DNA from: Thermococcus thioreducens
Lineage (GTDB): Archaea; Methanobacteriota_B; Thermococci; Thermococcales; Thermococcaceae
Reading direction: 5' to 3'
NCBI RefSeq assembly: GCF_002214545.1
Contig: NZ_CP015105.1
Location: forward strand, 1,550,001 to 1,614,000
DNA length: 64,000 bases
The notes beneath the pieces are model-generated. The model ran no database searches. It was given only the letters and a program-made list of their open reading frames with translations, and was not told the origin of the DNA. Position numbers and translations under genes: made by a program. Below, piece after piece: positions 4,191-39,775 of this stretch; the first letter of the stretch is position 1; each line of letters begins with the position of its first letter.

Positions 4191-4205
4191 CGGACAAATT
4201 ATCCA
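4191..4205 (-). promoter_or_regulatory. 15-bp inverted repeat over the meaB transcription start
   Basis: On the minus strand the site reads TGGATAATTTGTCCG: two near-complementary 7-base arms around one central base. It lies between the meaB TATA box (about 4211-4220) and the start codon at 4180, where a bound protein would block initiation. Closely matching sites occur at 4730-4744 and 39761-39775, both upstream of the other mutase genes. The sites are seen directly; regulation is inferred. Confidence 0.55.
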
Positions 4206-4227
4206 GAAAGAAATTATAAAGGTTGGG

Positions 4228-4659
4228 CTATCCCGACCTGAACTTCTTGAGCTTCGTGACGTTCTCATCGATGAAGCTTATTATGTCGCCGATCGGACTT
4301 CCCGGGCCGAAGACCTTGGCAACGCCGGTCTTCTCAAGCTGTTCGGCGTCGTCGGGCGGTATTATTCCACCGGCAATAACGAGAACGTCTTCGTTGGGCT
4401 TTATACCGCGCTCCTCAAGAAGCCTCAGAATCTTGGGAATCAGAACCATGTGCGCACCGGAGAGGATGCTTATCCCAAGGACGTCAACGTCCTCCTGGAT
4501 GACGCTCTCCACTATCTGCTCCGGAGTCTGTCTTATGCCCGTGTATATGACCTCAAAACCAGCGTCACGCAAAGCCCTCGCAACGACCTTGGCTCCCCTG
4601 TCGTGACCGTCAAGTCCGGGTTTTGCAACGAGAACCCTAACCTTGGAGCGCTCGACCAT
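4228..4659 (-). CDS. mcmA2: Methylmalonyl-CoA mutase, cobalamin-binding small subunit
   Basis: This is the B12-binding half of the mutase that converts R-methylmalonyl-CoA to succinyl-CoA. The signature DGHDRG (DxHxxG, residues 17-22) carries the lower-axial histidine. It is followed by the SILSGAH and [10 protein letters not shown] loops of the B12 fold. The start at 4659 (143 aa) is preferred over an in-frame ATG at 4707. The earlier start would include the TATA box TTTAAATAC (about 4690-4698), whereas GGTGGTGG sits just before 4659. In archaea this domain is a separate protein; its catalytic partner is encoded at 38000-39688. Confidence 0.95.
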
Positions 4660-4729
4660 TTCCACCACCGGCTGAGTTTCTCTTTTGACGTATTTAAAGG
4701 TTGTCAAAACTCAAGGTTGGGCTTTACGT

Positions 4730-4744
4730 TGGATATTTTGTCCA
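4730..4744 (+). promoter_or_regulatory. 15-bp inverted repeat between mcmA2 and the PHP gene
   Basis: The sequence TGGATATTTTGTCCA has imperfect 7-base inverted arms. It lies about 31 bases upstream of the mcmA2 TATA box and just before the TATA-like TTTTTAATG of the divergent PHP gene. The flanking AAGGTTGGGCTT, 17 bases to the left, is also found at the same distance from the site at 39761-39775. It could serve either gene. Confidence 0.5.
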
Positions 4745-4779
4745 GAAGGCTTTTTAATGCCCTTTCCCGAATCCACAGC

Positions 4780-5436
4780 ATGCTCGAATTCCCACACGAC
4801 ATACACACCCACACCGTCTACTCGGACGGTATCGGGGGGATAGCCGAGAACATAGCAGCTGCCGAAGAGAAGGGACTTAGACTGCTTGGCATAACCGACC
4901 ACAGCCACTACCTCTCGGAGAGAACCCTCGGCAGGTACGTTAGGGAGATAAAGCGGTGGGGAGGGGAGACGGATATAACGGTGCTGGCAGGGGTTGAGGG
5001 CAACATAACATCCGGAGGAGTCGATGTTCCGGACGTCATGGCGAAAAAGCTCGACTACGTGATAGCCAGCGTCCACGAGTGGCTGGAGAGCCCGAGCCAG
5101 TACATCGGGCTTGTGAAGCTGGCCCTTCTCGATGAGAACGTGACGGTCATAGGGCACTTCGGTGCAAACTTTCCCCACATAGGGTATCCATCAATGGAGG
5201 AGCTGGAGGAGGTTCTCGATCTGGCAGAGGCCAACGGAAAGGCCTTCGAGATAAGCTCCCGCTACCGTGTTCCCGACACTGACTTCATAAGGGAGTGCAT
5301 AAAGCGCGGCGTAAAGCTGGCCTTCGCGAGCGATGCCCACAGGCCAAGGGGCGTTGGGAGCGTCTCCTGGAGCGAGAGGGTTTTCAAGAAGGCGGGAGGA
5401 AAAAAGGAAGACCTGCTGTTCGGGGAGTTATTGTAA
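4780..5436 (+). CDS. PHP-domain phosphoesterase
   Basis: The 218-residue protein shows the polymerase-and-histidinol-phosphatase fold motifs in order: HDIHTHTVYSDG near the N-terminus, LGITDHSHY, LAGVEGNI, ASVHEW, IGHFGANF, and FASDAHRP near the end. These supply the usual histidine and aspartate ligands of a metal centre. The substrate is unknown; PHP enzymes include histidinol phosphatase, DNA polymerase accessory domains and nucleases. The ATG at 4780 lies about 25 bases after TTTTTAATG, so the message is probably leaderless. The CRISPR array begins six bases after the stop codon. A complementary open frame on the minus strand (4711-5178) is only its shadow. Confidence 0.88.
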   Translation: MLEFPHDIHTHTVYSDGIGGIAENIAAAEEKGLRLLGITDHSHYLSERTLGRYVREIKRWGGETDITVLAGVEGNITSGGVDVPDVMAKKLDYVIASVHEWLESPSQYIGLVKLALLDENVTVIGHFGANFPHIGYPSMEELEEVLDLAEANGKAFEISSRYRVPDTDFIRECIKRGVKLAFASDAHRPRGVGSVSWSERVFKKAGGKKEDLLFGELL

Positions 5437-5441
5437 GTTTG

Positions 5442-7222
5442 CTTTCAATTCTCCTAGAGTCTTATTGCGGGGGGACGTTCCGTCCCCCACCCCCTCGAAC
5501 TTAAACGCATGAAACACCTAGGAATTCCCCTAGAGTCTTATTGCAACTCACCTAGGTTTTCGCCCCAGCCCATGCTACTAAGGCACTTTCAATTCTCCTA
5601 GAGTCTTATTGCAACAACTATCCTGCTGAGGACTATACAGACCACCCAAAGCCTTTCAATTCTCCTAGAGTCTTATTGCAACGCGACGATTAGACGGCTC
5701 ATGATTTCAACATTCGCCGCTTTCAATTCTCCTAGAGTCTTATTGCAACATGGAAAAGAATACACAAAGCTTGTGTTTGGTGAAGGCTTTCAATTCTCCT
5801 AGAGTCTTATTGCAACATGGCTGGCGGAGAAAGTGTCGAGCTTGTTAGTGTTTCTTTCAATTCTCCTAGAGTCTTATTGCAACCACTTTTACAGCGAAGA
5901 GCTTTCGCCAGCCGATCTAACTTTCAATTCTCCTAGAGTCTTATTGCAACCCGAAGGGCAGGGATGCTCTTCTTATCGCCAAGGTCTCTTTCAATTCTCC
6001 TAGAGTCTTATTGCAACAAGCTTGAGAAAATCGAAGAAGCGATAGAAGAGCTACACTTTCAATTCTCCTAGAGTCTTATTGCAACCCTTTCTCCTAACCT
6101 TAGTCTTTCTCCTCCTGACCATCTTTCAATTCTCCTAGAGTCTTATTGCAACTTTTCTCTGCCATTATCTGGAGTTGTTTTTTAACCTCTTTCAATTCTC
6201 CTAGAGTCTTATTGCAACCTGTCGAGGAAGTAGGCGATTTTAACCTCGTTCGGAACTTTCAATTCTCCTAGAGTCTTATTGCAACTCGAGCAACACGTCA
6301 TACCTGCCGTTAAGTATCTCCTTATCTTTCAATTCTCCTAGAGTCTTATTGCAACCAGCCGCTGTTCCTCGTTCATTCTCTCCCAGCCGACTTTCAATTC
6401 TCCTAGAGTCTTATTGCAACAGTTCAGTCACTGAACAGGGGCTAAATCCAGTAGAACTTTCAATTCTCCTAGAGTCTTATTGCAACCAGAGACACGGAGA
6501 AGGACTTTAATGGCGCTCATCACTTTCAATTCTCCTAGAGTCTTATTGCAACAAATTTGCTATGGGTGTTTTATTGAAGCTGAAAGTTAACTTTCAATTC
6601 TCCTAGAGTCTTATTGCAACGTAAACTACCTTATATAGCCTTCCCAGAACCGCCACCAGCTTTCAATTCTCCTAGAGTCTTATTGCAACTCGAGGAGCTG
6701 AACGGCAAAATAGACGTGACGCTGTCTTTCAATTCTCCTAGAGTCTTATTGCAACCCACATCAAGGAGGGAACCGCACCGGGGACACCTAAACTTTCAAT
6801 TCTCCTAGAGTCTTATTGCAACTGTGGAGGGCTTCTATAACGTCGCCCTTGATTTTGTCTTTCAATTCTCCTAGAGTCTTATTGCAACACTGAAAAAGGT
6901 AGATGGAAAAGGCTTTTTGTAATTACCTTTCAATTCTCCTAGAGTCTTATTGCAACCCTCCGTTAGCGCACTTCTCCTTAAAAAGTTTTCGGCTTTCAAT
7001 TCTCCTAGAGTCTTATTGCAACAGTGTTAGCATCAGCACCGAGGACGTGGGGAGGTTCCTTTCAATTCTCCTAGAGTCTTATTGCAACGAGCGAGGTTTG
7101 CGCTCTGGTTTCCAGTGTTTGTCTTCTTTCAATTCTCCTAGAGTCTTATTGCAACCTCAACACCGCTACAGCTCCAGTGACGTGGGACATAACTTTCAAT
7201 TCTCCTAGAGTCTTATTGCAAC
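5442..7222 (-). CRISPR. CRISPR array: 27 repeats of 30 bp, 26 spacers
   Basis: The 30-bp repeat begins CTTTCAATTCTCC and ends TCTTATTGCAAC on the plus strand. On the minus strand it starts GTTGCAATAAGAC and ends ATTGAAAG, the Thermococcales crRNA 5-prime tag, so transcription runs leftward. Repeats start at 5442, 5518, 5586, 5653, 5720, 5787, 5854, 5921, 5988, 6056, 6123, 6189, 6256, 6326, 6391, 6457, 6523, 6591, 6660, 6726, 6793, 6859, 6927, 6993, 7059, 7126 and 7193. The last 25 are identical. The two leftmost are degenerate: repeat 1 loses its terminal AAC, and repeat 2 has four substitutions. Spacers are 35-40 nt, except for the 46-nt first gap, which holds a GC hairpin. No cas genes lie in the window. 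Confidence 0.99.
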
Positions 7223-7677
7223 AGGCTGGAATTTCCTCCCATTTGCCCAATAAGCCTCTAAAACACCCCCAATATTTAAGCCTTTCTGGAAACCGATAGA
7301 AAAGGGACTCTCATAATGCCTGAAACGGTGAGGCCAGAGAGCTCGGAAGGGTTAAATGGGAGTCCAAGAGACTGCAAACGTTCAGTGAACAGAAAAGTCC
7401 ATGTGATTTCCCGAGCACCGTGATACGTCCAAACGCCGAAAACGGCGATATTAATATTTTAAAATCCAAAATATCCAGTTTTGACAAGTTGCCGGCGTTT
7501 TCGAGCCCTGCTCCTCCCCTGTCATGATTCTCGAAGAAATTTCGTTACAATCAATGCTTAAAATAGCGACAATAAGTTATACCCTCGGAACCATAAAAAG
7601 TGATTTCCCGAGAGGCTCACCTGCGGAGTTTTAGAAATTGCTCCCTCTGAGGAGAGATATCCGAAAAATAAATTCTC
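7223..7677 (-). promoter_or_regulatory. CRISPR leader region
   Basis: These 455 bases contain no convincing gene. They adjoin the perfect, presumably youngest, repeats and are richer in A+T than neighbouring genes. Read leftward, GAAAGG followed by CTTAAATATT (minus strand of 7271-7280) forms a BRE/TATA pair that would start transcription about 25 bases later, just before the first repeat. A 13-base word GTGATTTCCCGAG occurs twice (7403-7415 and 7600-7612), and a short palindrome GTTCAGTGAAC lies at 7380-7390. Leader identity follows from position and repeat polarity; its boundaries are not defined. Confidence 0.75.
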
Positions 7678-8238
7678 TCAGCGTGATAGAACGTCAAATC
7701 CAAGCTCCCTCAGCCTCCAGACTATCTCCAGCGGGAAGCCGACGACGTTGTAGTAGTCACCCCTGATCCACTCGACGAACAGGCCGGCCTTCCCCTGTAT
7801 GCCGTAAGCTCCGGCCTTGTCCATCGGCTCACCGGTTCTGACGTATGCCCATATCAACTCATCGTCCAGCTCGCGAAACTTGACTTCAGTGACTACCGCC
7901 CCAGATATTTCTTTACCCTCGTGGACTATGCAGTAGCCAGTTATAACCATGTGAACCCCTCCGCTCAGTGTTTTCAGCATCTCGTAAGCTTCTTCTTCGC
8001 TTCTCGGCTTCCCAAGGATTCTACCGTCTATGCTGACCACCGTATCGGCGCCGATGACGGTTCCGCCCACACGTTCGTAAACTTCCCATGCCTTCCTCCT
8101 GGCGAGTTCCAGGGCGTATTCTGTGGGATCCTCCAGGTTACACTCCTCACTCGCCCTGCTCGGAATAACCTCGAACCGGTCTATGAACCGGGCGAGTATC
8201 TCCCGCCTCCTCGGTGAGGCAGAGGCCAGAACCAGCAT
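7678..8238 (-). CDS. maf: Maf-like nucleotide pyrophosphatase
   Basis: Maf proteins hydrolyse non-canonical or modified nucleoside triphosphates and act as house-cleaning enzymes. The 186-residue sequence opens LVLASASPRRREIL, the Maf signature. It then has the S-R-A-S-E-E loop, an IGADTVVSIDGRILGKP motif, and a final GDYYNVVGFPL. Length is typical. The ribosome site GGAGGAGAG precedes the start, and a TTTTTTAA element lies about 25-33 bases upstream. Its promoter overlaps the guide-RNA gene at 8284-8345 on the opposite strand. Confidence 0.95.
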   Translation of the reverse strand: MLVLASASPRRREILARFIDRFEVIPSRASEECNLEDPTEYALELARRKAWEVYERVGGTVIGADTVVSIDGRILGKPRSEEEAYEMLKTLSGGVHMVITGYCIVHEGKEISGAVVTEVKFRELDDELIWAYVRTGEPMDKAGAYGIQGKAGLFVEWIRGDYYNVVGFPLEIVWRLRELGFDVLSR

Positions 8239-8283
8239 GGTCTCTCCTCCGGAAAAGGGTTAAAAAATCTTGCGAGAACCTAA

Positions 8284-8345
8284 TCCGGCGATGAAGACAA
8301 TTTCGCTAGCTGATGCGTGATGAGTACCCTCGCAGCTGAGCCGTT
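8284..8345 (+). ncRNA. Box C/D guide RNA
   Basis: All four boxes occur in order with correct spacing: C-like GCGATGA (8288-8294), D-prime CTGA (8310-8313), C-prime GTGATGA (8317-8323) and D CTGA (8336-8339). GGC and GCC can close a terminal stem. The guide before D-prime (8295-8309) ends AATTTCGCTAG. Ten of its bases complement the universally conserved 23S rRNA segment UAGCGAAAUU. The fifth-base rule would place a ribose methyl at the C of that segment (E. coli C1934, numbered from memory). The second guide is GTACCCTCGCAG (8324-8335); I do not know its target. The gene fills the gap between maf and the small membrane operon. Confidence 0.82.
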
Positions 8346-8529
8346 ATGTGGGCCTTTTGAATCCAGTCCACTTTTCGATGCTTGAAACGAGTAGGTAAAC
8401 GAAGGCCAGTACCCAGAGGGAACTTCCCACCAGTAGGGCGTCTGAGCCAACAAAAAACACCGACAGATATGCAAATAGCCCTCCAATTGCCAGAGTCCAG
8501 AAAACCCTATTTTTCCATATCCTCACCAT
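8344..8529 (-). CDS. Small two-helix membrane protein (fifth of five)
   Basis: A 61-residue protein starting MVRIWKNRVFW. It has two hydrophobic segments (about residues 8-27 and 32-50) separated by a short VGSD turn, and a short basic tail. It overlaps the end of the preceding gene by 23 bases. The start at 8529 follows GGGGGAGAG. Unlike its four upstream neighbours it lacks an obvious coiled coil after the second helix. It closes a five-gene run of mini-membrane proteins. No known family was recognised. The longer open frame extending upstream is judged artefactual. Confidence 0.6.
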   Translation of the reverse strand: MVRIWKNRVFWTLAIGGLFAYLSVFFVGSDALLVGSSLWVLAFVYLLVSSIEKWTGFKRPT

Positions 8530-8755
8530 CGTTCTCTCCCCCATCGGACTCACCCAGGATGAACTCCAGTTCAAGGATTCTGTCTTCCAGACGCTCCAGC
8601 TCCCTCCAGATGGCGAGAAGCAGAAAGGCCAGAACAACGAAGGAGATACCAAGGTAGAAACCCACATCCCTCCTATGTTCTGGCTGTGCGTACATAAGCA
8701 GGGAGAGGGATACGAGAAGTGCAAAAAGCGCCGAAAGGTCCCTAACGAGCTTCAT
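8507..8755 (-). CDS. Small membrane protein with coiled-coil tail (fourth of five)
   Basis: An 82-residue protein beginning MKLVRDLSALFALLVSLSLL. It has two hydrophobic segments split by a charged turn (QPEHRRD), then a heptad-like helix (ELERLEDRILELEFILGE) and an acidic end. The start at 8755 is one base after the preceding stop codon. Topology matches the three genes before it: hairpin in the membrane with the coiled coil presumably cytoplasmic. Function is unknown. Confidence 0.72.
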   Translation of the reverse strand: MKLVRDLSALFALLVSLSLLMYAQPEHRRDVGFYLGISFVVLAFLLLAIWRELERLEDRILELEFILGESDGGENDGEDMEK

Positions 8756-8756
8756 C

Positions 8757-8981
8757 TCACCCCGCCTCCTCAAGCTCCTTCTTGAGCCTCTTTATTTCGC
8801 GGTTCAAAGTCGATATCTCTGATCTTAAGGTGCCTATCTCGTTCGCCACCCCGATTAAGGCCCAGCCGACCAGGGCAAAGAGCAGAGCCACCATGATGGC
8901 AAAGAACCAGCCTCCCGGAGATATTAGGAGGAATATCGAGAGAACGACTACCACAAAGCCCCTGGTGGAGACGTCAACCAT
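8757..8981 (-). CDS. Small membrane protein with coiled-coil tail (third of five)
   Basis: A 74-residue protein with two membrane segments (about residues 8-22 and 25-46) joined by SPGGW, then a strong amphipathic helix (IGTLRSEISTLNREIKRLKK) with leucine/isoleucine spacing of a coiled coil. It overlaps the preceding gene by eight bases, a translationally coupled arrangement. No family was recognised. Confidence 0.75.
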   Translation of the reverse strand: MVDVSTRGFVVVVLSIFLLISPGGWFFAIMVALLFALVGWALIGVANEIGTLRSEISTLNREIKRLKKELEEAG

Positions 8982-9207
8982 CGGCGGTGCCCCCAGAGGC
9001 TTTGAGAGACTCTATCTCCCGCCTCAGGAAATCGAGCTTCTCGTTGAACTCCCTCCGCATCTCGCCCATCTTCCAGACTACGAGTCCCATCACAAGGAGC
9101 ACCGGCCCAAGAATCAATCCAGCTCCCCCTGCGGTGAGCAGTATCACCAGGGCGACGCCCGTCAGTATGGCCCCTATAGCCTCAAGGATGTCGTACTCAC
9201 CCCCCAT
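8974..9207 (-). CDS. Small membrane protein with coiled-coil tail (second of five)
   Basis: A 77-residue protein. Two hydrophobic segments (about residues 10-26 and 29-45) are linked by a glycine-rich turn (TAGGAG). They are followed by KMGEMRREFNEKLDFLRREI, an amphipathic helix with heptad spacing. It overlaps the first gene of the operon by 11 bases. GGGGGGAC is the likely ribosome site. The architecture is the same as its neighbours, while the sequences have drifted apart. Confidence 0.75.
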   Translation of the reverse strand: MGGEYDILEAIGAILTGVALVILLTAGGAGLILGPVLLVMGLVVWKMGEMRREFNEKLDFLRREIESLKASGGTADG

Positions 9208-9433
9208 CTTTCGTGTCCCCCCGTTCGTCCCGGAGCGCCTTTAGCTCCTCCCTAATGCTTCTGACCTCACTGCTGAGCTCCCACATCTTGACGATGAGAA
9301 CGACAAGCAGAGCCAGGGGCAATAGCCCAAGGAAGAGCACCATCAGGCTTGGGCCCCCTGGGATAAAGGGCATGAATATCAGGAGTATAAAGAATATCGC
9401 CCCGAGGATTGCCAGTACGTCGGCGGCTCCCAC
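9197..9433 (-). CDS. Small membrane protein with coiled-coil tail (first of five)
   Basis: A 78-residue protein that opens the five-gene run. Hydrophobic segments at about residues 5-24 and 29-48 are joined by PGGPS. The tail WELSSEVRSIREELKALRDE is a predicted coiled coil. The stop codon lies inside the next gene. The intergenic stretch to the PIN-domain ATPase at 9480 is about 45 bases and that gene is also on the minus strand, so the run may be transcribed with it or from its own promoter. Function is unknown. Confidence 0.75.
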   Translation of the reverse strand: MGAADVLAILGAIFFILLIFMPFIPGGPSLMVLFLGLLPLALLVVLIVKMWELSSEVRSIREELKALRDERGDTKDGG

Positions 9434-9479
9434 TAGTTACCACCATAGAAAAGAAGAAGGCAAACTATAAAAAGTTTTC

Positions 9480-11288
9480 TCAGGCGGTCGCCCAGATTGG
9501 AATGCCAGCATCGAGGAGCCTTTTCAGCTCCTTCCCTATCGGCGTGCTCTTGCTGACCTTCACGAGCCCTTTCTTGCTCGGCGTTGCCGTAAAGACGTAC
9601 TGCTCGCCACCGTAGAACTTGAGGGGCCTCTTTGCATAGTCCGGGGAAACGCGGAGGACAATCGTTTTCTTCTTCTCCTCGACCTCAACCGGTATCTTCT
9701 CCTTGGGCCTCTCGGCTTCCCTCTCGGTGAAGCTCTTGACGTCGATGCTTATACCTATCCTCTTCTCCAGCTCCGTAATCCTCTTCCCCTTCTTGCCGAT
9801 TATCGCCGGGATGTCGAACTCGTCGGCGTATATTATCGCCTTGTGCGGGCTGACTATCTCGACTTCGGTGTAAACGTCAGGAAGGAACTTCTTTATCTCC
9901 TGCTTGAGCCTCTTCTCGGCGAGCTTCAAAGCGGGAGCCTTCTCCTCCTTCTTCACCGGGACGACACTTATCTCCTCGCCGTAGGTGTAAATCTCGTACT
10001 CCAGCTCGCCCGTCTCGAAATCGCGAACCTCTATCACCGGCCTCGCTAAATCTTCCTCCCTCATGCCGCTCGGCACCTTGACGAGGTACTCCAGCGTCAG
10101 GACCTTGGCGACCCTTCCGGCCTTGATGAAGATGACGGTATCGACTATCTGTGGTATCATTCCGAGCTCCACCCTTCCGATGAAGCGCTGGACTGCATCT
10201 ATCGGCTTCGTTGCGTGCACAACTCCTACCATACCCACTCCCGCCAGGCGGAGGTCAGCGTATATCTTAAAGTCGCTCGTCTTCCTCATCTCGTCGAATA
10301 TCGTGTAGTCCGGCCTCACCAGGAGGAGTATATCGCCGGTCTTCTCCATCCTGCCGTTTAGGGCTGTGTATTGCGTTATTTCCTCCCCAACCTGGAGGTC
10401 GCGCGGCTTTTCCATCGTCTTGACTATCCTTCCCATGCCCGCGTACCACTCGGCGAGGGCCTGGGCGAAGGTCGTCTTTCCTTCACCCGGCGCTCCGGCG
10501 ATGAGTATCCCCTCCGCCTTCTCCTTGAGGCGCTCCATGAGCTTCTCGCTCAGTTCGTAGTCCTCAATGCTGAGCTTCTTGACAGGCCTGACGGCGGTTA
10601 TCTCTATCCTGTCCGCGAAGGGCGGTTTGGCTATGACTATACGGTAGTTCCTGAGCTGAACGACAGTCGCCCCGGGCTCGTCGAGCTCTATGAAGCTCTC
10701 TGGATCGCGCTTTGCCCTCTCAACTATGTCGTCCGCTATCTCCTCCAGCTCCTCATCCGTGAGGATTTCGTCCCTGACCGGGACGAGCCTCCACTCTCCA
10801 GGTCTTCCCTTCTTTGCGAGGGGCCTCAGTCCGGCCTTCAGATGGACGCTCATCGTGGTCTCGTCGAAAAAGTCCTCCAGGCGGTGCCTGACATCCTTTC
10901 TGGCAGTTAAATATATCACGTCTATGCCCTTTGCTATCGCTATATCGCGCTGCACCTGGTCGCCGGTTATCAGAGTAGCCCCAAGTTCTTTGGCTATCTC
11001 CCGGACCATGCTGTCTATCTCCCCGGACTTGGCCCTTTTTATCTGCCAGAGCTCGGGCCTCTCCCCGTGGAACTCCAGGAGGATCCTGCCCTCGTTGGCC
11101 ATTTCTCTAAGCTTCTTGAGTTCCTCAAGTCCAACATGGCCTATCGCCTTTCCCTCGTTGGCCTGGTGCTCTATCTCGGCTATGACCGCCTCAGGTATGA
11201 TGACCTTAACATCACCATCGATACCCGCGAGGAACTGTGTAAGCCTACCGTCAACGATTACGCTCGTATCGGCAACAAACGTCCTCAT
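9480..11288 (-). CDS. PIN-domain / VirB11-like ATPase / KH-domain protein
   Basis: A three-part archaeal protein. The N-terminal PIN nuclease fold begins RTFVADTSVIVDG and contains TLITGDQVQRDIA. A type II/IV secretion-like ATPase follows with Walker A GAPGEGKTT near residue 265 and the DEMRKTSDF region near 320-330. A KH-like RNA-binding segment (AIIGKKGKRITELEKRIGI) lies near 480-500. A short C-terminal beta-rich segment closes it. I chose the ATG at 11288 (602 aa) because GAGGTGAGAGA sits directly before it; a GTG 13 codons upstream lacks this. The domain mix suggests an RNA-related NTPase rather than a pilus motor. Biological role is unknown. Confidence 0.9.
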   Translation of the reverse strand: MRTFVADTSVIVDGRLTQFLAGIDGDVKVIIPEAVIAEIEHQANEGKAIGHVGLEELKKLREMANEGRILLEFHGERPELWQIKRAKSGEIDSMVREIAKELGATLITGDQVQRDIAIAKGIDVIYLTARKDVRHRLEDFFDETTMSVHLKAGLRPLAKKGRPGEWRLVPVRDEILTDEELEEIADDIVERAKRDPESFIELDEPGATVVQLRNYRIVIAKPPFADRIEITAVRPVKKLSIEDYELSEKLMERLKEKAEGILIAGAPGEGKTTFAQALAEWYAGMGRIVKTMEKPRDLQVGEEITQYTALNGRMEKTGDILLLVRPDYTIFDEMRKTSDFKIYADLRLAGVGMVGVVHATKPIDAVQRFIGRVELGMIPQIVDTVIFIKAGRVAKVLTLEYLVKVPSGMREEDLARPVIEVRDFETGELEYEIYTYGEEISVVPVKKEEKAPALKLAEKRLKQEIKKFLPDVYTEVEIVSPHKAIIYADEFDIPAIIGKKGKRITELEKRIGISIDVKSFTEREAERPKEKIPVEVEEKKKTIVLRVSPDYAKRPLKFYGGEQYVFTATPSKKGLVKVSKSTPIGKELKRLLDAGIPIWATA

Positions 11289-11395
11289 TTCTCTCACCTC
11301 AGAAGATTCAAACTCTCCGTCCTCCACAATACTTCAAAGAGGTGCTATAACTAAAGGTTCATAAAGGTTTAGCCGAAAAGTAGATGGGTGGGACA

Positions 11396-16869: not shown

Positions 16870-16901
16870 CGGCCTCCTACAGGTGAAGCCTTGGTGGGAG
16901 A

Positions 16902-28435: not shown

Positions 28436-28443
28436 CCCCCCTC

Positions 28444-31318: not shown

Positions 31319-31411
31319 CAAGCCTTCCCCTCTCTGAGGGGTGGTGAGCAATCCAGTAGGCCGAGGCAAAGGCTAAAATATTGCTCCCCCAATTTTTCTT
31401 AGGTGGGTGTT

Positions 31412-32437: not shown

Positions 32438-32459
32438 ACTTCGCCTTTTTATTTCAAAC

Positions 32460-33359
32460 TTAAACCGGAATCTTAAGGTTGAGCTTGTCCACAAGCTCCT
32501 TGTAGCGGTTTCTGACGGTGACCTCGGTGACGCGGGCGACTTCCGCAACTTCCCGCTGGGTCCTCTTCTCGTCCTCAAGCAAACCGGCAATGTATAGCGC
32601 CGCCGCAACCAGACCCGCGGGGCTCTTTCCGCTCGTCAGTCCTTTATCGTAGGCCTCGTCAAGTATGGCTATGGCCCTCCTCCGCACCCTCTCGCTGAGC
32701 CCCAGCTCATCGGCGAACTTGTTGACGTAGTCAGTGGGCTTAACGAAGAGCTTCTTTGGCGTGAGGTTGAGGTTTCTGGCAATAAAGCGGAAGCTCCTGC
32801 CTATCTCCTTCTTGTCAACACGGGATATGTCGGCTATCTCGTCGAGGGTTCTCGGAACCTTGAGGAGTCTGCAGGCGGCGTAGACACATGCCGCTATGAC
32901 GCTCTCTATGGAGCGTCCCCTTATGAGGCCCTTCCTGACGGCCTCACGGTAGAGCCTCGCGGCCTCTTCCTCAACGTGCCTCGGGAGCTTGAGCTGTGAG
33001 GCTATTCTATCCAGCTCGCTCAAAGCGAAGGCAAGGTTACGCTCGGCCGCATCGCTTACCCTCAAGCGGGACTGCCACTTTCTAAGTCTGTACATCTTCT
33101 CGCGCATAAGTCCGGAGAGGTTCCTGTCTATGCCGATGTCGGTCGAAAGACCCTTGTCGTGCAGAAGAATGCTCTCCGGGGCACCAACGCGCGCCCTTTT
33201 CTCCCTCTGGCTCGCGTCAAAAGCGCGCCATTCGGGGCCCATATCTATGACGTTCTCCTCAATAACGTAACCGCAAACCTTACAGACGACCTCTCCCCTA
33301 CCCGGGTCGTAGATGAACTCCGTCGAGCCGCAGACCGGGCAGACCCTACGCTTGCTCAC
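32460..33359 (-). CDS. tfb: Transcription initiation factor TFB
   Basis: TFB recruits archaeal RNA polymerase to the TBP-bound promoter. The 299-residue protein has an N-terminal zinc ribbon with Cys7, Cys10, Cys26 and Cys29, then the B-finger region GPEWRAFDASQREKRAR. Two cyclin-like repeats follow, ending EKRTQREVAEVARVTEVTVRNR with the BRE-reading helix-turn-helix. Thermococcales usually carry two TFBs; which one this is cannot be settled here. Confidence 0.96.
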   Translation of the reverse strand: MSKRRVCPVCGSTEFIYDPGRGEVVCKVCGYVIEENVIDMGPEWRAFDASQREKRARVGAPESILLHDKGLSTDIGIDRNLSGLMREKMYRLRKWQSRLRVSDAAERNLAFALSELDRIASQLKLPRHVEEEAARLYREAVRKGLIRGRSIESVIAACVYAACRLLKVPRTLDEIADISRVDKKEIGRSFRFIARNLNLTPKKLFVKPTDYVNKFADELGLSERVRRRAIAILDEAYDKGLTSGKSPAGLVAAALYIAGLLEDEKRTQREVAEVARVTEVTVRNRYKELVDKLNLKIPV

Positions 33360-33397
33360 TCAAACACCCCCAACCGGCCGGCTATTTTATAAAGCCC

Positions 33398-33676
33398 TTA
33401 TAAACCTTCTCCTTTTTTCACAACGTAGCGGAGTAACCAGGCGAGGTCCTCGCGCTTGAAGGTTATCCGCTCCAGAACCCGGACGTCCCAGTCGTCCTCA
33501 ACTATGTTGGCGTAAATCCAGAGGAATACAGGGTCATCGTCAGTCCCAACGTGCAGGTTCCTGTAGAGAACATCAACGGTTCCGTCCTTGTTCTTCTTAA
33601 CCGAGACGGCCTTCCAGGTTTCAAGACTAACCTCTCCCTTCTCGTCCAGTATTTTGACTATCTCCCTGGCGTCCAT
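33398..33676 (-). CDS. Conserved hypothetical protein, 92 aa
   Basis: A small soluble protein. A possible short helix-turn segment (REIVKILDEKGEVSLETWK) is followed by beta strands (AVSVKKNKDGTVDVLYRN, DDPVFLWIYANIVED) and a final helix. The product is acidic in the middle with a basic tail. It lies 15 bases downstream of the PDCD5-like gene on the same strand, so they are likely co-transcribed with the S19e cluster. No family was recognised. Confidence 0.7.
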   Translation of the reverse strand: MDAREIVKILDEKGEVSLETWKAVSVKKNKDGTVDVLYRNLHVGTDDDPVFLWIYANIVEDDWDVRVLERITFKREDLAWLLRYVVKKGEGL

Positions 33677-33691
33677 GAAGGCACCTTCTGG

Positions 33692-34030
33692 CTACCATTT
33701 AATCTTGAAGTCCCGTCTCGTCCTTGCGTCAATCTGGGCGAGTATTTTCTTCAGCTTGGCGTCGTCTATGGGCTCCCTTATCTGTCCGGCCTGGTAGAGC
33801 TGGACGAGGACGAGCTGAACCTGTCTCGCGAGCTCTGGCTTAACGAGCTTCACCCTTCCGAGCCTTTCCCTGGCCTCCGGCGTGAGGATCCTTCTCATTA
33901 TCGCATCTAGCTGAGCCTCAAGCTCCATCTCCTGCCTTATGGCCTCTTCCTGAGCCTTCTGCTGCTCAAGATACTTCTTCTGAAGCTCCATGAGCTTGCG
34001 CTTCCTGATCTCCTCTATGTCCTCGGCCAT
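33692..34030 (-). CDS. PDCD5-like DNA-binding protein
   Basis: A 112-residue helical protein. A charged Lys/Glu/Gln helix (KRKLMELQKKYLEQQKAQEE) leads into the conserved triple-helix core ILTPEARERLGRVKLVKPEL and QIREPIDDAKLKKILAQI, the PDCD5/TFAR19 signature. Archaeal members bind DNA; their exact role is not established. It sits next to ribosomal genes, as is common in archaea. Confidence 0.93.
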   Translation of the reverse strand: MAEDIEEIRKRKLMELQKKYLEQQKAQEEAIRQEMELEAQLDAIMRRILTPEARERLGRVKLVKPELARQVQLVLVQLYQAGQIREPIDDAKLKKILAQIDARTRRDFKIKW

Positions 34031-34135
34031 CCTCTCACCCCCATGCTAAGGTTAGGCCTCCGGTTAAAAAGGTATTGGGTTCTGAGAACCGGAGAAAGGT
34101 CAGACAGAAGCTAACAAGGGAAAAGGGCAGAGCCC

Positions 34136-34588
34136 TCAGTACTTCTTGAGCTCCGGAATCTGCTCCTCAAGCTCCTTCTTGAGCTCGGTGGCAATCTTGT
34201 CGAGGAAGCTCTGTCCCTGCGGGGTGACAATCCTGCCCTCGCCCGGAACCTTCTGGACGAAGCCGGCAGCCTCAAGCTGCTGGAGGGCCTTCCTTATGAT
34301 GCCCCCGCCGGCCTTGTAGAAGTGCTCCGGGGCGTGCCCGCGGTTCTTCCTGCCGCCGTACCAGGTGCGGAGCCTCTCGATTCCGACCGGGCCGTCGATG
34401 TAGATCTTCCTGAAGATGCTTGCAACCCTGTAGTACCACCAGTCCTCCTGCTCCGGAAGGCGCTCCTTGTGCCTGCCGGTCTTGACGAACGGGGCCCACT
34501 CGGGCGGCTTTATGGCCTCGATCTCCTTGAGAGCCTTTGCAACCCTCTCCACGAGCAAATCACCGGGAACGTCGTAAACGGTCGCCAT
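34136..34588 (-). CDS. rps19e: Ribosomal protein eS19
   Basis: A 150-residue small-subunit protein shared by archaea and eukaryotes. Key segments are [20 protein letters not shown], the [20 protein letters not shown] core, and the [20 protein letters not shown] loop that binds rRNA. The length is standard. It is three bases downstream of the CRM-domain gene, in the same operon. Confidence 0.97.
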
Positions 34589-34591
34589 CTT

Positions 34592-35008
34592 TCAATCCCT
34601 CCCCTTCTTGAATTTCCTCCTGAATTGAGCGATATCGAGCCTGACTTTCTTAACGGGCTTCTCCTCCCGCTTTTCCTTCGAAAGCTCCTTTCTCTGGAGC
34701 TTCCTTAAATACTTTTCCCAACCTTCCCTCGGTTTGAACAATATAAACCTTTTGCCGCGAACTTCTATGAGCTCGCTGTCGGTGAGCTCGGCCACCTTCT
34801 CGGCCAGCTCCTTCCTGTCGAGGCCGGTTGAGATGAGCGCACCTTTTCTGATCTCCACTTTAAGGATGCCGTCCTTCTCAAGCTGGGTGTTTATCTCCTC
34901 AATCACACCCTCATCCAGTCCCCTCTTACCTATCCAGGCTCGCGGGGGGATGTCGTAGTATCTCGCCCTTATCGCCCTTCTCACCTTTCCGGGTAAGCGT
35001 TTCTCCAT
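34592..35008 (-). CDS. YhbY/CRM-domain RNA-binding protein
   Basis: A 138-residue protein. The segment IGKRGLDEGVIEEINTQLEK, followed by ILKVEIRKGA and LIEVRGKRFILFKP, is the CRM (YhbY-like) fold with its GxxG-type loop, associated with ribosome assembly. A basic tail (ELSKEKREEKPVKKVR, FRRKFKKGR) likely adds RNA affinity. The start at 35008 follows GAGGTGAGAG. Position ahead of S19e supports a ribosomal link. Confidence 0.87.
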   Translation of the reverse strand: MEKRLPGKVRRAIRARYYDIPPRAWIGKRGLDEGVIEEINTQLEKDGILKVEIRKGALISTGLDRKELAEKVAELTDSELIEVRGKRFILFKPREGWEKYLRKLQRKELSKEKREEKPVKKVRLDIAQFRRKFKKGRD

Positions 35009-35065
35009 CTCTCTCACCTCTTAGCTCTCGCGGTAGAGGGCTTTAAAAAGGTTGGCCTTTTAAAG

Positions 35066-35461
35066 CTATTTACTGAAGTGCTCCATAGCTTCTTCTGGTG
35101 TGAAGACCTCAGGAAGCCATCCGAAGTGCTTCTTGTTGTAAGTGATCAGCGGGGCGTTGAGTTTCAGCGCCAAGGCACCTATCATGTAATCCCTGGCGTT
35201 TTTGGAGAAGTCCCAGTGACCGATAGCGGAATTCACGGCAAGTTCAGCGCAGGTTTCATCAAATCCCATAACTTTAATTCCCAGAGAATCAAAGATTGCC
35301 ATTAACTTGCTCTTCGCTTCGGGCAGGCCTTTTCGTCGGGCGTATCTGTAGAGCAGTTCCATGTAGACGACGGAGCTCGTAACGGGTTCAAGACTCGATT
35401 CCATCAACCATTCTAAAAAAGTACTGTTGTTGAAGGCGTTTGTGTCCAGGACTATTTTCAT
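35066..35461 (-). CDS. vapC: VapC-type PIN-domain toxin
   Basis: A 131-residue PIN ribonuclease. Asp6 in IVLDTNAFN, a glutamate in VVYMELLYRYA and the aspartate of ARDYMIGALALKLN provide the usual acidic cluster; LITYNKKHFGWL follows. Its start overlaps the antitoxin stop by four bases. VapC toxins cleave specific RNAs; the target is unknown. Confidence 0.88.
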   Translation of the reverse strand: MKIVLDTNAFNNSTFLEWLMESSLEPVTSSVVYMELLYRYARRKGLPEAKSKLMAIFDSLGIKVMGFDETCAELAVNSAIGHWDFSKNARDYMIGALALKLNAPLITYNKKHFGWLPEVFTPEEAMEHFSK

Positions 35462-35706
35462 TCCCCTCCCTCCAGCTCGCGAAGAGACCGCTCTATACCC
35501 CTCGCAAGTCCCTGCCTGACCTCCTCAACGGTCTCGTCTATGTCCTTTGTTATCTCGCTAAGCTCCTTGAGGAGGTCGGTTAGTTTCATCAGAACGTACC
35601 TGTCACCTTCACGGACGAAGACCACCTCGTCCCCGGCCCTTATCCCCAGTGCCTCCCGCACCTCCTTGGGGATCGTGACCTGGTATTTCTTTGTCACAAC
35701 TGGCAT
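35458..35706 (-). CDS. vapB: AbrB-type antitoxin (VapB)
   Basis: An 82-residue protein. The N-terminal swapped-hairpin DNA-binding domain MPVVTKKYQVTIPKEVREALGIRAGDEVVFV is typical of AbrB/MazE-like antitoxins. The C-terminus is helical and would mask the toxin. The start at 35706 follows GGTGAAG. An imperfect inverted repeat (35720-35749) lies just upstream, a likely autoregulatory site. Confidence 0.87.
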   Translation of the reverse strand: MPVVTKKYQVTIPKEVREALGIRAGDEVVFVREGDRYVLMKLTDLLKELSEITKDIDETVEEVRQGLARGIERSLRELEGGE

Positions 35707-35719
35707 TACCTTCACCAAC

Positions 35720-35749
35720 ATGGTATTACATTCTTGGCCTAATAACCAT
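35720..35749 (-). promoter_or_regulatory. Imperfect inverted repeat upstream of vapB
   Basis: ATGGTATTA (35720-35728) and TAATAACCAT (35740-35749) form inverted arms differing by one base, 14-43 bases upstream of the vapB start. AbrB-type antitoxins bind such sites with their toxins. Seen directly; function inferred. Confidence 0.4.
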
Positions 35750-35800
35750 TTCGGGGTGAGGTTAATAAGGAGCTCCGGACACTCAAAATGGGGGACTGCC

Positions 35801-36406
35801 ATGATCGTCCATCATCTCTACTCCGGCGGCAAGGACTCAAGCCTGAGTGCGTGGATTCTAACTAGGCTCGGCTACGAGGTGAGATTGGTTACCGTCAGCT
35901 TTGGCACTCTCGACAACTGGCGATTCGCGAGGGAGACTGCCGAACGGCTCGGCTTCGAGCACCAGGTTCTCTACCTGCCGCGCGAGGTTCTGGAGAGGGC
36001 GGCGGATATGGCAGTAAGCGACGGCCACCCGAACAACGCAATACAGTTCATCCATGAGCAGGCTTTAGAGGCGCTGGCATCGCTTCCGGAGGTCGAGAGG
36101 GTCAGCGACGGGACGAGGAGGGACGACAGGGTTCCTTTCCTCGACCTGCCGAGGGCCCGCTCCCTGGAGGACCGCTTTAACGTCGCCTACATAAGGCCCC
36201 TGCTCGGCCTCGGTTACAAGACGATACGCGAGCTGACAGAGAGGCTCTTCGTCGTTGAAATCCGCGAGAGCGAGGAGCTAGAAAAGGCGGACTACGAGGT
36301 CGAGCTCAGGCACGTCCTCCGCGAGAGGGGAATCGACCCGCTGGAGATATTCCCAAAGAGGCACTACCAGTCGAGGGTTCTCGGCTGGAGGGGAGAGGAG
36401 ACCTGA
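35801..36406 (+). CDS. PP-loop ATP pyrophosphatase superfamily protein
   Basis: A 201-residue adenine-nucleotide alpha-hydrolase. HHLYSGGKDSSLSAWIL contains the PP-loop SGGKDS at the very N-terminus, and LVTVSFGTLDN and SDGTRRDDRVPFLDLP follow. Such enzymes adenylate a substrate, as in tRNA thiolation or diphthamide synthesis. The exact activity here is unknown. The start at 35801 follows GGGGGAC, close behind a TTAATAAG element. The promoter region is shared with the divergent vapBC pair. Confidence 0.85.
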   Translation: MIVHHLYSGGKDSSLSAWILTRLGYEVRLVTVSFGTLDNWRFARETAERLGFEHQVLYLPREVLERAADMAVSDGHPNNAIQFIHEQALEALASLPEVERVSDGTRRDDRVPFLDLPRARSLEDRFNVAYIRPLLGLGYKTIRELTERLFVVEIRESEELEKADYEVELRHVLRERGIDPLEIFPKRHYQSRVLGWRGEET

Positions 36407-36484
36407 TCCTATACATCTCTTCCAAACTTCCCCGTGAAGAATCGCTTAGAGTGAGTTCGAGTTGCTGGAGAAGAGAAAAGGGAA

Positions 36485-36715
36485 TCAGAGGCCGCTCAGC
36501 TTTCTGACTATCGGGTTCTCGGCCTCTTCGGGCTTTATCTCCTCGACGCTCTCGATCCATATCTTGTTCCTCGGGACACGGTGCTTGCTGCCGACCTCGG
36601 AGTAGAGTATCTCGATGACGTCCTCTTTCTTAAGGCCACGGTACTCCCTGGTGAACCTCTCCCTCTTTCCGTTCCTCTCGAACACGCCCTTAACGCGGAA
36701 GACCTTAACCTCCAT
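36485..36715 (-). CDS. rplX: Ribosomal protein LX (eL20/L18a)
   Basis: A 76-residue large-subunit protein. [20 protein letters not shown] and a C-terminal [17 protein letters not shown] match archaeal LX, the half-size form of eukaryotic L18a. It is the last gene of the L39e-L31e-eIF6-LX operon. Confidence 0.95.
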
Positions 36716-36732
36716 TCCTCACACCTCCACCA

Positions 36733-37419
36733 TCAGTCAAGGAATCCCAAAGCCTCCTCAATCTTCACGATCTCGGGTCCAGTTGTTAGGTGTCCAACGA
36801 CGACACCGTGAGAGTTGGCAAGCATGCAGGAGCCAACGAAGGGAACGCCCATGTTGGCGGTTCCGACGTAAATATCGACCTTGAAGAGGTCGCGGAGCCA
36901 CTCAAGCTCCTCATCGGTCGCCTCGGGGTGAACCAAACCGCCCCTGTTGGTGACCACCCCAACGCTTCCAACGGCGTGGAAGTCGCCTATCATCCCCCTC
37001 TCGACCTCGACGCCGAGTATGTCCTCAAGCTTCTTGGCCTCCTCGCGGGTGAACTTGGCGCTTATCAGGGCCGCCCTGTCGTTCGCCAAAATCAGGTTGC
37101 CGAAGGCCGTGAGGGTGCTCTGGAAGGGAACCACCTCTGTATCTATCCCGTGCTCCCTAAGCTGGCCGTTTATCTTCTCCAGCTCCGCGTCCCAGACGTA
37201 CCACGGGACGACTATCGCGTTGGAGTTCCCGGCCGCGAATATGCCTACTATGCGCGACTTCATAATGCTCGTCTCGACGAGCGGAACCTTGAGAACCTCC
37301 CTGAGAACCTCAAGCTTCCTCTCACCGAGGCCCTCCCTGATAAGGACTACCCTCTCGGTGGCAGTTCCGTAAACGCCCAGATACGGGGAGTTCTCAAAAT
37401 CGAGCCTTTCTATGTGCAT
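36733..37419 (-). CDS. eif6: Translation initiation factor 6
   Basis: aIF6 binds the large subunit and blocks premature joining with the small subunit. The 228-residue protein has the five-fold pentein repeat pattern; examples are IVVPWYVWDAELEKI, LILANDRAALIS, and GSCMLANSHGVVVGHLTTG. It lies in the same order with L31e and L39e as in other archaea. Confidence 0.97.
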   Translation of the reverse strand: MHIERLDFENSPYLGVYGTATERVVLIREGLGERKLEVLREVLKVPLVETSIMKSRIVGIFAAGNSNAIVVPWYVWDAELEKINGQLREHGIDTEVVPFQSTLTAFGNLILANDRAALISAKFTREEAKKLEDILGVEVERGMIGDFHAVGSVGVVTNRGGLVHPEATDEELEWLRDLFKVDIYVGTANMGVPFVGSCMLANSHGVVVGHLTTGPEIVKIEEALGFLD

Positions 37420-37446
37420 CTCGTCACCTCTTTAAATTAAAAGGGA

Positions 37447-37716
37447 TCAGGCTAGGGAGACCTTGGCAATCCTCTTGCCCTCTTCCTCTTCGACAACAAC
37501 CTTAACGCGGAGCTTGCTGGGCGGCTTTTCGGCGCCGCGCTCCCAGAGCTTCTCGTTGACGTCGGTGCCTATGATGACCTCGTCGGCCTTGGCGTGCCTG
37601 GCTATCCACTCGCGGACGAAGCGAGCAGCCCTCGGGGCCCTCTTCCAGCGCGGAACGCGCTTCTTTATCTTCTTGATGGGAACGACGAATATGACTTCCT
37701 CTCCGGGCTTGATCAT
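37447..37716 (-). CDS. rpl31e: Ribosomal protein eL31
   Basis: An 89-residue ribosomal protein with [20 protein letters not shown] and [20 protein letters not shown], both hallmarks of L31e near the tunnel exit. It follows L39e directly in the operon. Confidence 0.97.
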
Positions 37717-37726
37717 CTAAATCACC

Positions 37727-37882
37727 TCACTCCTTAAGCTTGGTCCTTCTCCACATTCTCCTCTTGGGGTGGGTCATGACCTTCCTGTTGGTCTTGACGA
37801 TGACCCAGACCGGAATGCGCCTGTTCTGCTTCGCGGCCTTGGCAAGTCTGAGCTTCTTCGCAAGCGGCTTGTTTCTCGCCAT
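37727..37882 (-). CDS. rpl39e: Ribosomal protein eL39
   Basis: Translating from the ATG at 37882 gives 51 residues: [20 protein letters not shown], then [15 protein letters not shown] and [16 protein letters not shown]. This is the full-length L39e of the exit tunnel. It is too short for many gene callers. It starts the operon and ends 10 bases before L31e. Confidence 0.97.
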
Positions 37883-37999
37883 AACTACACCTCCCGGGAT
37901 TATCATGATGCCTGTTGATGCTTTGGCTATCCTTTTTTAAGCTTTTTCGTGGGGTTTTAAGGTTTTCCGCGATGGAAATAAAAGGGAAGAAGAGCCACC

Positions 38000-39688
38000 T
38001 CAGAATATCAGCGGGGCCCTGTACTCGCCCCAGACCTCGCGGAGGACGTCGGTGACCTCTCCGAGTGTTGCCAAATGGCGGTGGGCCTCGATTATGTATG
38101 GCATGAGGTTCTCGTCCTCGGTTTCGGCAGCCTTCCTGAGCCTGTCCAAGGCCTCCTCGACCTTCTTGTTATCGCGCTCGGAGCGGAGCTTTTTAAGGCG
38201 TTCAATCTGCTTCTCCCTGATGCTCGGGTCGACCTTGAGTATCTCGACGTCGAGCGGTTCATCAACTATGAACTCGTTCACGCCGACGATGATGCGCTTC
38301 TTCTCCTCGACTTCCTTCTGGTACTTGTAAGCTGACTCCGCTATCTCCTTCTGGATGTAGCCGCGCTCGATAGCCCTCATCATGCCGCCCATCTTCTGAA
38401 TCTTCTCAATGTACTTGAGGGCCTCCTCGTATATGTGGTCGGTGAGCCACTCGATGTAGTACGAGCCTCCGAGCGGGTCTATGGTGTCCACAACGCCGCT
38501 CTCGTAGGCGATGATCTGCTGCGTCCTGAGGGCTATCCTGACGCTCTTCTCGGTTGGCAAACTTAACGCCTCGTCGTAGGAGTTGGTGTGTAAGCTCTGG
38601 GTTCCGCCGAGGACGGCAGCCAAAGCCTGAATAGCAACCCTCACGATGTTGTTCTCCGGCTGCTGGGCGGTGAGGGTTGAGCCTGCCGTCTGGGTGTGGA
38701 AGCGCAGGAGCATTGAGCGCGGGTTCTTGGCGTTGAACCACTCCTTCATGATGTAGGCCCAGAGCCTTCTGGCAGCTCTAAACTTGGCAATCTCCTCAAG
38801 GAAGTTGTTGTGGGCGTTGAAGAAGAAGCTCAGCCTTCCGGCGAACTTATCGACGTCCATCCCCCTGTCTATGACGGCCTTGACATACTCTATACCGTCC
38901 GCCAAAGTGAACGCGACCTCCTGGACGGCGTTGGCACCGGCCTCACGGATGTGGTAGCCGCTTATCGAAATCGGGTTCCACTTGGGGACGTTCTCGGCGC
39001 AGTACATGATGATGTCAGTGGTGAGCCTCATGCTCGGCTGGGGCGGGAAGATGTAGGTGCCCCTGGCTATGTACTCCTTGAGGATGTCGTTCTGAACCGT
39101 TCCGCGGAGCTGGTTCTGGGCGACGCCCTGCTCCTCGGCAACGAGGATGTACATCGCGAGGAGGTTTGCCGCGGTCGAGTTGATGGTCATGCTCGTTGAA
39201 ACCTTGTCGAGCGGGATTCCGTCGAAGAGGACGCGCATGTCCCAGAGGGAGTCGATCGCAACTCCGACCTTTCCGACCTCACCCTCGCTCATCGGGTGGT
39301 CGGAGTCATAGCCTATCTGCGTCGGCAGGTCGAAGGCGACGCTGAGACCGGTCTGCCCCTGCTCCAGGAGGTACTTGTAGCGCCTGTTGGATTCTTCAGC
39401 GGTTCCAAAACCGGCGTACTGCCTCATCGTCCAGAACCTGCCGCGGTACATGGTGGCGTAGACGCCGCGGGTGAACGGGTACTCACCGGGGAAGCCGAGC
39501 TTTTCGAGGTAATCCCAGTCCTCACCGAGGTCAGCGGGAGTGTAAACGCGTTTTATCTCAAAACCGTCGTCGGTCATGAACTTCTCCTTTCTCTCGGGCC
39601 TCTTCTCGATAAACTTTTTAACCGTCGTTTCGTCCCAGCGCTTTTCCTCTTCCCTAATCTTCGCGAGCTTCTCCTTATCGAAAGTCAT
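38000..39688 (-). CDS. mcmA1: Methylmalonyl-CoA mutase, catalytic large subunit
   Basis: The 562-residue TIM-barrel subunit that binds the CoA ester. Typical segments are RMYTPADL-like [58 protein letters not shown], and the [20 protein letters not shown] region. The B12 domain is absent, as expected for the split archaeal enzyme; it is encoded at 4228-4659. The start at 39688 follows GGTGGT. A 15-bp inverted repeat upstream (39761-39775) matches sites at mcmA2 and meaB. Confidence 0.96.
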
Positions 39689-39760
39689 GCCTACCACCTG
39701 CCCCTATTTGGGCGCCGGCATATAAAAAGCTTTTACATAACTAAAGGTTGGGCTTGACGT

Positions 39761-39775
39761 TGGATAAATTATCCA
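39761..39775 (-). promoter_or_regulatory. 15-bp perfect inverted repeat upstream of mcmA1
   Basis: TGGATAAATTATCCA is a perfect 7-1-7 palindrome. It lies 32 bases upstream of the mcmA1 TATA element (TATAAAAAG, 39721-39729). The same distance separates the mcmA2 site from its TATA box, and both share AAGGTTGGGCTT at the same offset. It may also serve the divergent MBL gene at 39820. Regulation is inferred. Confidence 0.6.

What the first reader, a model, noticed from the sequence alone, without database searches (positions are those of the whole stretch)
4191..39775. Shared 15-bp palindrome upstream of all three methylmalonyl-CoA mutase transcription units
Sites at 4191-4205 (meaB-mce), 4730-4744 (mcmA2) and 39761-39775 (mcmA1) read TGGATAA-T-TTGTCCG, TGGATAT-T-TTGTCCA and TGGATAA-A-TTATCCA. 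The last two lie 31 and 32 bases upstream of their TATA boxes and share AAGGTTGGGCTT at the same offset. The first covers the transcription start. These genes encode one pathway split across 35 kb. This suggests a dedicated regulator, possibly activating at two promoters and repressing at one.
Basis: partly seen in the sequence, partly recalled or inferred. Interest (0 to 1): 0.7.

Follow-up and report, generated by a model that had tools for sequence, protein, structure and literature searches.

The report
Archaeal vitamin B12 regulon operator
The three matching DNA palindromes are most likely binding sites of a still unidentified vitamin B12-responsive regulator which, in this family of archaea, seems to switch B12-using enzymes on and B12 uptake and B12-free enzymes off, depending on where the site lies in the promoter.

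Summary
The palindromes are at the stated places, but they are not specific to methylmalonyl-CoA mutase. TGGAYAWWTTRTCCA occurs in 91 of 94 genomes of the family; the reversed control occurs in none. In 25 genomes whose exact sites were all fetched, 68 of 72 sites adjoin one B12-centred gene set: mcmA1, mcmA2, meaB, mmdA, an acyl-CoA synthetase alpha gene (ACS-alpha), nrdD, btuF/cobT and a radical-SAM gene. One-mismatch sites add nrdJ, btuC and cbiB. This fits the predicted archaeal cobalamin regulon ('CblR', regulator unknown; PMC10746257, passages).

The addition is geometry. The box lies upstream of TATA at mcmA1 (14/14), mcmA2 (13/13), mmdA (4/4) and ACS-alpha (28/29), and between TATA and the start codon at meaB (10/10), btuC (5/5) and btuF (5/7); nrdD and cobT are mixed. 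That fits a B12-bound regulator that activates from one position and represses from the other. In a second family, 7 of 11 examined palindromes lie at corrinoid or transporter-like genes. The regulator gene is unknown; the ArsR neighbour failed two tests. There are no expression or binding data here.

The parts
4191..4205 (-). B12-regulon box at the meaB-mce promoter, repressor-type position
4213..4220 (-). TATA box of meaB-mce (TTTATAAT)
   Evidence: prediction
3221..4189 (-). meaB (ATG at 4180)
   Evidence: TIGR00750
2823..3224 (-). mce, methylmalonyl-CoA epimerase
   Evidence: TIGR03081
4730..4744 (-). B12-regulon box of mcmA2, activator-type position
4705..4716 (-). mcm-specific element CCTTGAGTTTTG
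4691..4698 (-). TATA box of mcmA2 (TTTAAATA)
   Evidence: prediction
4228..4707 (-). mcmA2 open frame, B12-binding subunit; likely ATG start at 4659
   Evidence: PF02310
39761..39775 (-). B12-regulon box of mcmA1, activator-type position
39736..39747 (-). mcm-specific element CCTTTAGTTATG
39719..39726 (-). TATA box of mcmA1 (TTTATATG)
   Evidence: prediction
38000..39697 (-). mcmA1 open frame; likely ATG start at 39688
   Evidence: TIGR00641

Best explanation
The palindrome TGGAYA-N3-TRTCCA is the operator of a family-wide cobalamin regulator (the predicted 'CblR', gene unknown). When B12 is plentiful the regulator, most likely with a cobalamin ligand, binds. From sites upstream of BRE/TATA it activates genes that use B12 or feed and drain its reaction (mcmA1, mcmA2, mmdA, usually the acyl-CoA synthetase alpha gene). 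From sites between TATA and the start codon it blocks B12 uptake and salvage (btuC, btuF, cobT, cbiB), the B12-independent ribonucleotide reductase nrdD and the internal meaB-mce promoter. In the window this predicts a promoter switch: with B12, mcmA2 is transcribed through the 38-nt gap into meaB-mce while the internal promoter is shut; without B12 only the short meaB-mce unit is made. Shown by sequence: the sites, their conservation, the gene set and the two positions. Inferred: that one protein binds them, that cobalamin is the signal, the sign of each effect, and the read-through.
For: 91 of 94 genomes carry exact sites, reversed control 0 of 94. 68 of 72 exact sites in 25 genomes adjoin the set; 42 of 54 one-mismatch sites in the loci I held from 17 genomes do too (not a full set). 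Gene identities from NCBIfam and Pfam. nrdD and nrdJ are a B12-free and a B12-dependent enzyme for one reaction, and both can carry the box. Position classes: box upstream of TATA at mcmA1 14/14, mcmA2 13/13, mmdA 4/4, ACS-alpha 28/29; downstream at meaB 10/10, btuC 5/5, btuF 5/7. In family f4, 7 of 11 examined palindromes lie at genes with B12-binding domains or at a transporter-like pair.
Against: No binding or expression data; transcription starts are not mapped. nrdD (12 down, 14 up, 4 overlapping) and cobT (3 down, 3 up) are mixed in the script's count, cbiB overlaps TATA in 2 of 2 and the radical-SAM gene splits 2 up, 1 overlapping; I explain this by second boxes and shared regions. For ACS-alpha the box of G077 (L115) reads by eye as downstream, opposite to the others. 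meaB is a mutase helper, so its repression is not obviously useful. nrdJ boxes lie far from the start (169-182 nt) with no clear TATA between, and 5 of 29 genomes lack them. Many rows come from closely related genomes and are not independent.
Confidence: 0.7

Rival explanations
1. A pathway-metabolite sensor (propionyl-, methylmalonyl- or succinyl-CoA): the regulator reads the pathway, and B12 genes are included because the pathway needs the cofactor.
For: mcmA1, mcmA2, meaB-mce, mmdA and ACS-alpha make up 43 of the 68 assigned exact sites; one exact site in G087 lies at an anion transporter of the CitMHS kind.
Against: nrdD, nrdJ, btuC, btuF, cobT and cbiB have no link to propionate except B12; in family f4 the genes are corrinoid methyltransferases.
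Confidence: 0.12
2. The regulator only represses. Upstream boxes act by looping, by blocking another activator, or serve a divergent gene.
For: Several boxes lie between divergent genes (PHP/mcmA2, MBL/mcmA1, ArsR/ACS-alpha), and repressors are the commoner kind.
Against: The distance to the mcm TATA is tightly kept over six genera while the divergent neighbour is not.
Confidence: 0.12
3. The ArsR-type protein encoded beside ACS-alpha (L001:4449-5033) is the regulator.
For: A box lies upstream of it in g1 genomes and in G087; a close copy is in 88 of 94 genomes, one of them partial.
Against: In G077 its promoter region has no box with up to 4 mismatches, and no one-mismatch site lies near it in G002. 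Family f4 has only weak partial matches (best E 4e-7 over 71 aa; G109 none), while families f2 and f5, where I saw no B12-linked boxes, have better ones (E about 1e-21).
Confidence: 0.08
4. The box is a chance or promoter-borne repeat without a regulator.
For: Chance matches do occur: in families f3 and f5, 10 of 10 examined palindromes lie inside predicted ORFs, and 4 of 72 exact family sites are outside the set.
Against: Reversed control 0 in 94 genomes against 91 with hits; the sites stay while the flanks diverge over six genera.
Confidence: 0.01

Closest known systems
Predicted cobalamin regulon 'CblR' of Pyrococcus/Thermococcus (RegPrecise, as cited in PMC10746257; passages read); 'CBL-box' of Rodionov et al. 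2003, J Biol Chem (recalled, not held)
   Same: A shared operator for cobalamin genes in these archaea, with the regulator gene unknown.
   Different: I could not compare the published consensus or member list. The two-position rule, the meaB promoter-switch reading and the second family are additions that I did not find in the searches made (open-licence papers only).
Cobalamin riboswitch regulons of bacteria (recalled)
   Same: B12 lowers uptake genes and B12-independent isozymes.
   Different: Here a DNA palindrome; no Rfam cobalamin match in the window or in the nrdJ leader of this genome; B12 users also appear to be activated.
SurR of Pyrococcus furiosus (title in the reference list of PMC10746257; details recalled)
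   Same: One regulator that both activates and represses.
   Different: Other operator, other signal.

Membership tests
Predicted archaeal cobalamin (CblR / CBL-box) regulon | One palindromic operator at promoters of B12 uptake or salvage and B12-dependent enzyme genes | tested here: met
   68 of 72 exact and 42 of 54 one-mismatch sites adjoin the set; identities
Predicted archaeal cobalamin (CblR / CBL-box) regulon | Same consensus and member list as published | not testable with these tools
   2003 paper not held; RegPrecise pages not available; the RegPrecise 3.0 text does not mention it (find)
Predicted archaeal cobalamin (CblR / CBL-box) regulon | Response of the genes to B12 | not testable with these tools
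   needs an experiment
Cobalamin riboswitch | Rfam cobalamin match in the leader | tested here: not met
   none among 26 matches in the window; no match at E up to 1 in L002:4900-5400
Regulator with a B12-binding domain (PF02310) fused to HTH | Such a fusion in the own genome | tested here: not met
   two PF02310 matches: mcmA2 and a radical-SAM protein below cut-off; a divergent domain would be missed
ArsR neighbour as the regulator | Orthologue wherever B12-linked boxes occur | tested here: not met
   weak partial matches only in G110-G112 and none in G109
ArsR neighbour as the regulator | Box kept at its own promoter | tested here: not met
   present in g1 and G087, absent in G077

The most novel reading that the evidence does not exclude
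A cobalamin sensor of a so far unrecognised kind, without a recognisable B12-binding domain and shared by two families of archaea, acts as a position-dependent switch: B12 turns on B12-dependent metabolism from sites roughly whole helical turns upstream of TATA and turns off B12 supply and B12-free enzymes from sites at the initiator. At mcmA2-meaB-mce this makes a B12-driven promoter switch inside one operon.
Probability: 0.4. Interest if true: 0.72.

Novelty: new member of a known kind. Interest (0 to 1): 0.55.

Why it matters
These archaea seem to control B12 through a DNA-binding protein that was listed as unknown in 2023 (PMC10746257, passages). The mapped operators, their two positions and the tests against the obvious neighbour turn that into a direct experiment: use the box as bait. 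If the position rule holds, the sign of regulation can be read from sequence, and the system would be a vitamin-controlled on/off switch for genetics in hyperthermophiles.

Tried and rejected
Regulator search: conserved neighbours of boxed genes across genera and domain searches of chosen ones gave enzymes, transporters and the ArsR pair, no other transcription factor; not every neighbour was scanned. PF02310 and PF01923 searches of the own genome gave no HTH fusion. The ArsR candidate was tested and judged unlikely.

nrdJ leader as a riboswitch: no Rfam match in this genome's leader; the alignment shows promoter-like elements instead.

Relatives of mcmA2 from genome contigs (the best 80 of 589 kept) bear no Thermococcales title and were not used.

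Rows left out of counts. Families f2-f5: of 12 palindromes in G109-G112, 11 were examined (not G110:C15:147819); the one in G108 was not; of 14 in f2, f3 and f5, 10 were (L184-L186, L265-L271), those of G094, G101, G102:C1 and G113:C138 were not. One search dropped 5 of 34 ACS-alpha and 1 of 6 btuC rows for lack of an ATG. One search used 29 of 30 nrdJ loci (L256 is cut). One-mismatch sites of G074, G090, G057 and some of G012 and G093 (capped list) were not fetched.
Full report
OBSERVATION. The three palindromes are real and where stated. In the window, 7 strand-matches at 4 places with up to 2 mismatches compare with 0.62 expected; none of 100 shuffles reaches 7.

GENOME-WIDE. The window lies in a 2.07-Mb single-contig genome, G000. 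The pattern TGGAYAWWTTRTCCR has two more places: 43137, between an ArsR-type gene and an ADP-forming acyl-CoA synthetase alpha gene (ACS-alpha), and 223681, upstream of the B12-dependent ribonucleotide reductase nrdJ. One-mismatch sites lie at a BtuF-like protein (934831), a BtuC-like permease (1851271) and CobT (1115659). Four other one-mismatch places (411698, 991131, 1109839, 1259448) were given no B12 role. At two mismatches the own genome has 18 + 24 strand-matches against 6 + 7 for the reversed control, so such sites are not reliable one by one. Boxes at nrdD, mmdA, cbiB and the radical-SAM gene were seen in relatives, not in G000.

FAMILY-WIDE. Exact TGGAYAWWTTRTCCA occurs in 91 of 94 genomes of the family; the reversed control has 0 matches in all 94. 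The three without are G049, G054 and G057; G057 has one-mismatch sites. I fetched all exact sites of 25 genomes from six genera: 72 sites, of which 68 adjoin nrdD (23), mcmA1 (13), ACS-alpha (13), mcmA2 (12), mmdA (4), meaB (1), btuF/cobT (1) or a radical-SAM gene (1). The other four are a MatE neighbour (L114), an anion transporter divergent from the ArsR gene (L135), a protein without Pfam match (L201) and a site inside a sulfatase-like ORF (L212). Of 54 one-mismatch sites in loci that I held from 17 genomes, 42 adjoin the set, now with nrdJ, btuC and cbiB. The set was defined after seeing the sites, and many genomes are close relatives. mmdA is my reading of a carboxyltransferase (PF01039) as methylmalonyl-CoA decarboxylase alpha.

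GEOMETRY. Promoter rows and a TATA scan limited to 28-60 nt upstream of an ATG give two classes. Box upstream of TATA: mcmA1 14/14 (gap 25 or 34-35), mcmA2 13/13 (21 or 31-32), mmdA 4/4 (32-33), ACS-alpha 28/29 (11, 26 or 31-33, and one of 64 without a good TATA), radical-SAM 2/3 (8-10). The ACS-alpha exception (L115, G077) reads by eye as downstream. Box downstream of TATA: meaB 10/10, btuC 5/5, btuF 5/7. Mixed: nrdD 12 down, 14 up, 4 overlapping (many have a second box); cobT 3 down, 3 up (it shares a region with btuF); cbiB 2 of 2 overlapping. For nrdJ the scan found no convincing TATA in 4 of 5. By eye, proximal nrdD, cobT and cbiB boxes lie just before the start codon. In archaea, binding at the initiator is expected to block RNA polymerase and binding upstream of BRE/TATA can recruit TBP or TFB (recalled knowledge). 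Length changes between box and TATA are mostly about 9-10 or 21 bp, but a change of about 6 occurs too and there are few distinct events, so phasing is only suggestive.

EXTRA ELEMENT. mcmA1 and mcmA2 promoters share CCTTNAGTTNTG, usually 13 nt after the box: 11 of 14 mcmA1 and 9 of 13 mcmA2 promoters score 10 or more of 12, against about 0.2-0.3% of shuffles; 0 of 34 ACS-alpha and 0 of 4 mmdA promoters do. I chose the element after seeing these promoters.

nrdJ. In 29 usable loci of 30 genomes searched, a box with at most 1 mismatch lies 169-182 nt before the ATG in 22, with 2 mismatches in 2, and is missing in 5, all genus g3. A second conserved stretch, TTTGTCA-N5-GGCAA followed by GGGYAAGRTATATTTA, is partly kept even in boxless genomes. 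No Rfam match in this genome's leader.

SECOND FAMILY. With a free centre (TGGAYANNNTRTCCA), G109-G112 of family f4 have 12 sites, reversed control 0. Of 11 examined, 7 lie at promoters of URO-D + B12-binding methyltransferases (L188, L259, L264), a corrinoid protein (L187, L261) or a DUF4430 + ECF-S pair (L260, L263); 4 do not (L189, L257, L258, L262). By eye the box is about 8-11 nt upstream of a TATA-like stretch at the methyltransferase and corrinoid genes and touches the start codon at the transporter-like pair. That DUF4430 resembles the cobalamin-binding domain of transcobalamin is recalled; Pfam calls the S component riboflavin-type, so B12 transport is inference. In families f3 and f5, 10 of 10 examined sites are inside predicted ORFs. 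With the stricter pattern only 5 of 21 genomes outside the family have a match.

REGULATOR. Unknown. The ArsR neighbour has a close copy in 88 of 94 genomes, one partial; the six others are at most 80% complete. Its promoter lacks the box in G077, and f4 has only weak matches to it. The own genome's PF02310 matches are mcmA2 and a radical-SAM protein; its single PF01923 adenosyltransferase lies in an open frame of 182 codons for a 171-position model, with no room for an HTH domain.

LITERATURE. [quoted passage not shown] furiosus regulons, citing RegPrecise among its sources. The RegPrecise 3.0 paper has no mention of CblR or cobalamin (find). The 2003 paper that I recall as the source of the 'CBL-box' is not held. 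Passages of PMC2667541 and PMC3407056 hold nothing on this regulation. Searches (listings) found no later identification; the library lacks most subscription journals.

VERDICT. This is most likely the operator of a cobalamin regulon already predicted by others. The position rule, the promoter-switch reading at mcmA2-meaB-mce and the second family are the additions.

Noticed in passing
window 5586-7222: CRISPR array just after the PHP-type gene: 25 CRISPR-DR6 repeats found by Rfam.
   Followed up: no
window 8287-8341: C/D box small RNA sR39 (Rfam RF01122, 77 bits).
   Followed up: no
window 4705-4716 and 39736-39747: Second promoter element CCTTNAGTTNTG shared by mcmA1 and mcmA2 promoters, usually 13 nt after the box, not found at ACS-alpha or mmdA; possibly a partner factor's site.
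   Followed up: partly
L002:5011-5181 (nrdJ upstream region) and L227-L255: Conserved TTTGTCA-N5-GGCAA and GGGYAAGRTATATTTA stretches between box and nrdJ start, partly kept in genomes that lack the box; may be the real nrdJ promoter with another regulator's site.
   Followed up: partly
L124:3088-4152, L125:1887-2951, L139:2986-4110: A radical-SAM protein (L124 scanned: Radical_SAM, DUF512) carries the box in G077, G093 and G087: a candidate new B12-linked gene.
   Followed up: partly
L001:3560-5033: Two ArsR-type genes flank a DUF211 gene beside ACS-alpha; the first ArsR copy is kept in 88 of 94 genomes (one partial), function unknown.
   Followed up: partly
L135:3002 (G087): An anion transporter of the CitMHS / Na_sulph_symp kind has an exact box in G087, where g1 genomes have the acyl-CoA synthetase; possible succinate link.
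   Followed up: partly
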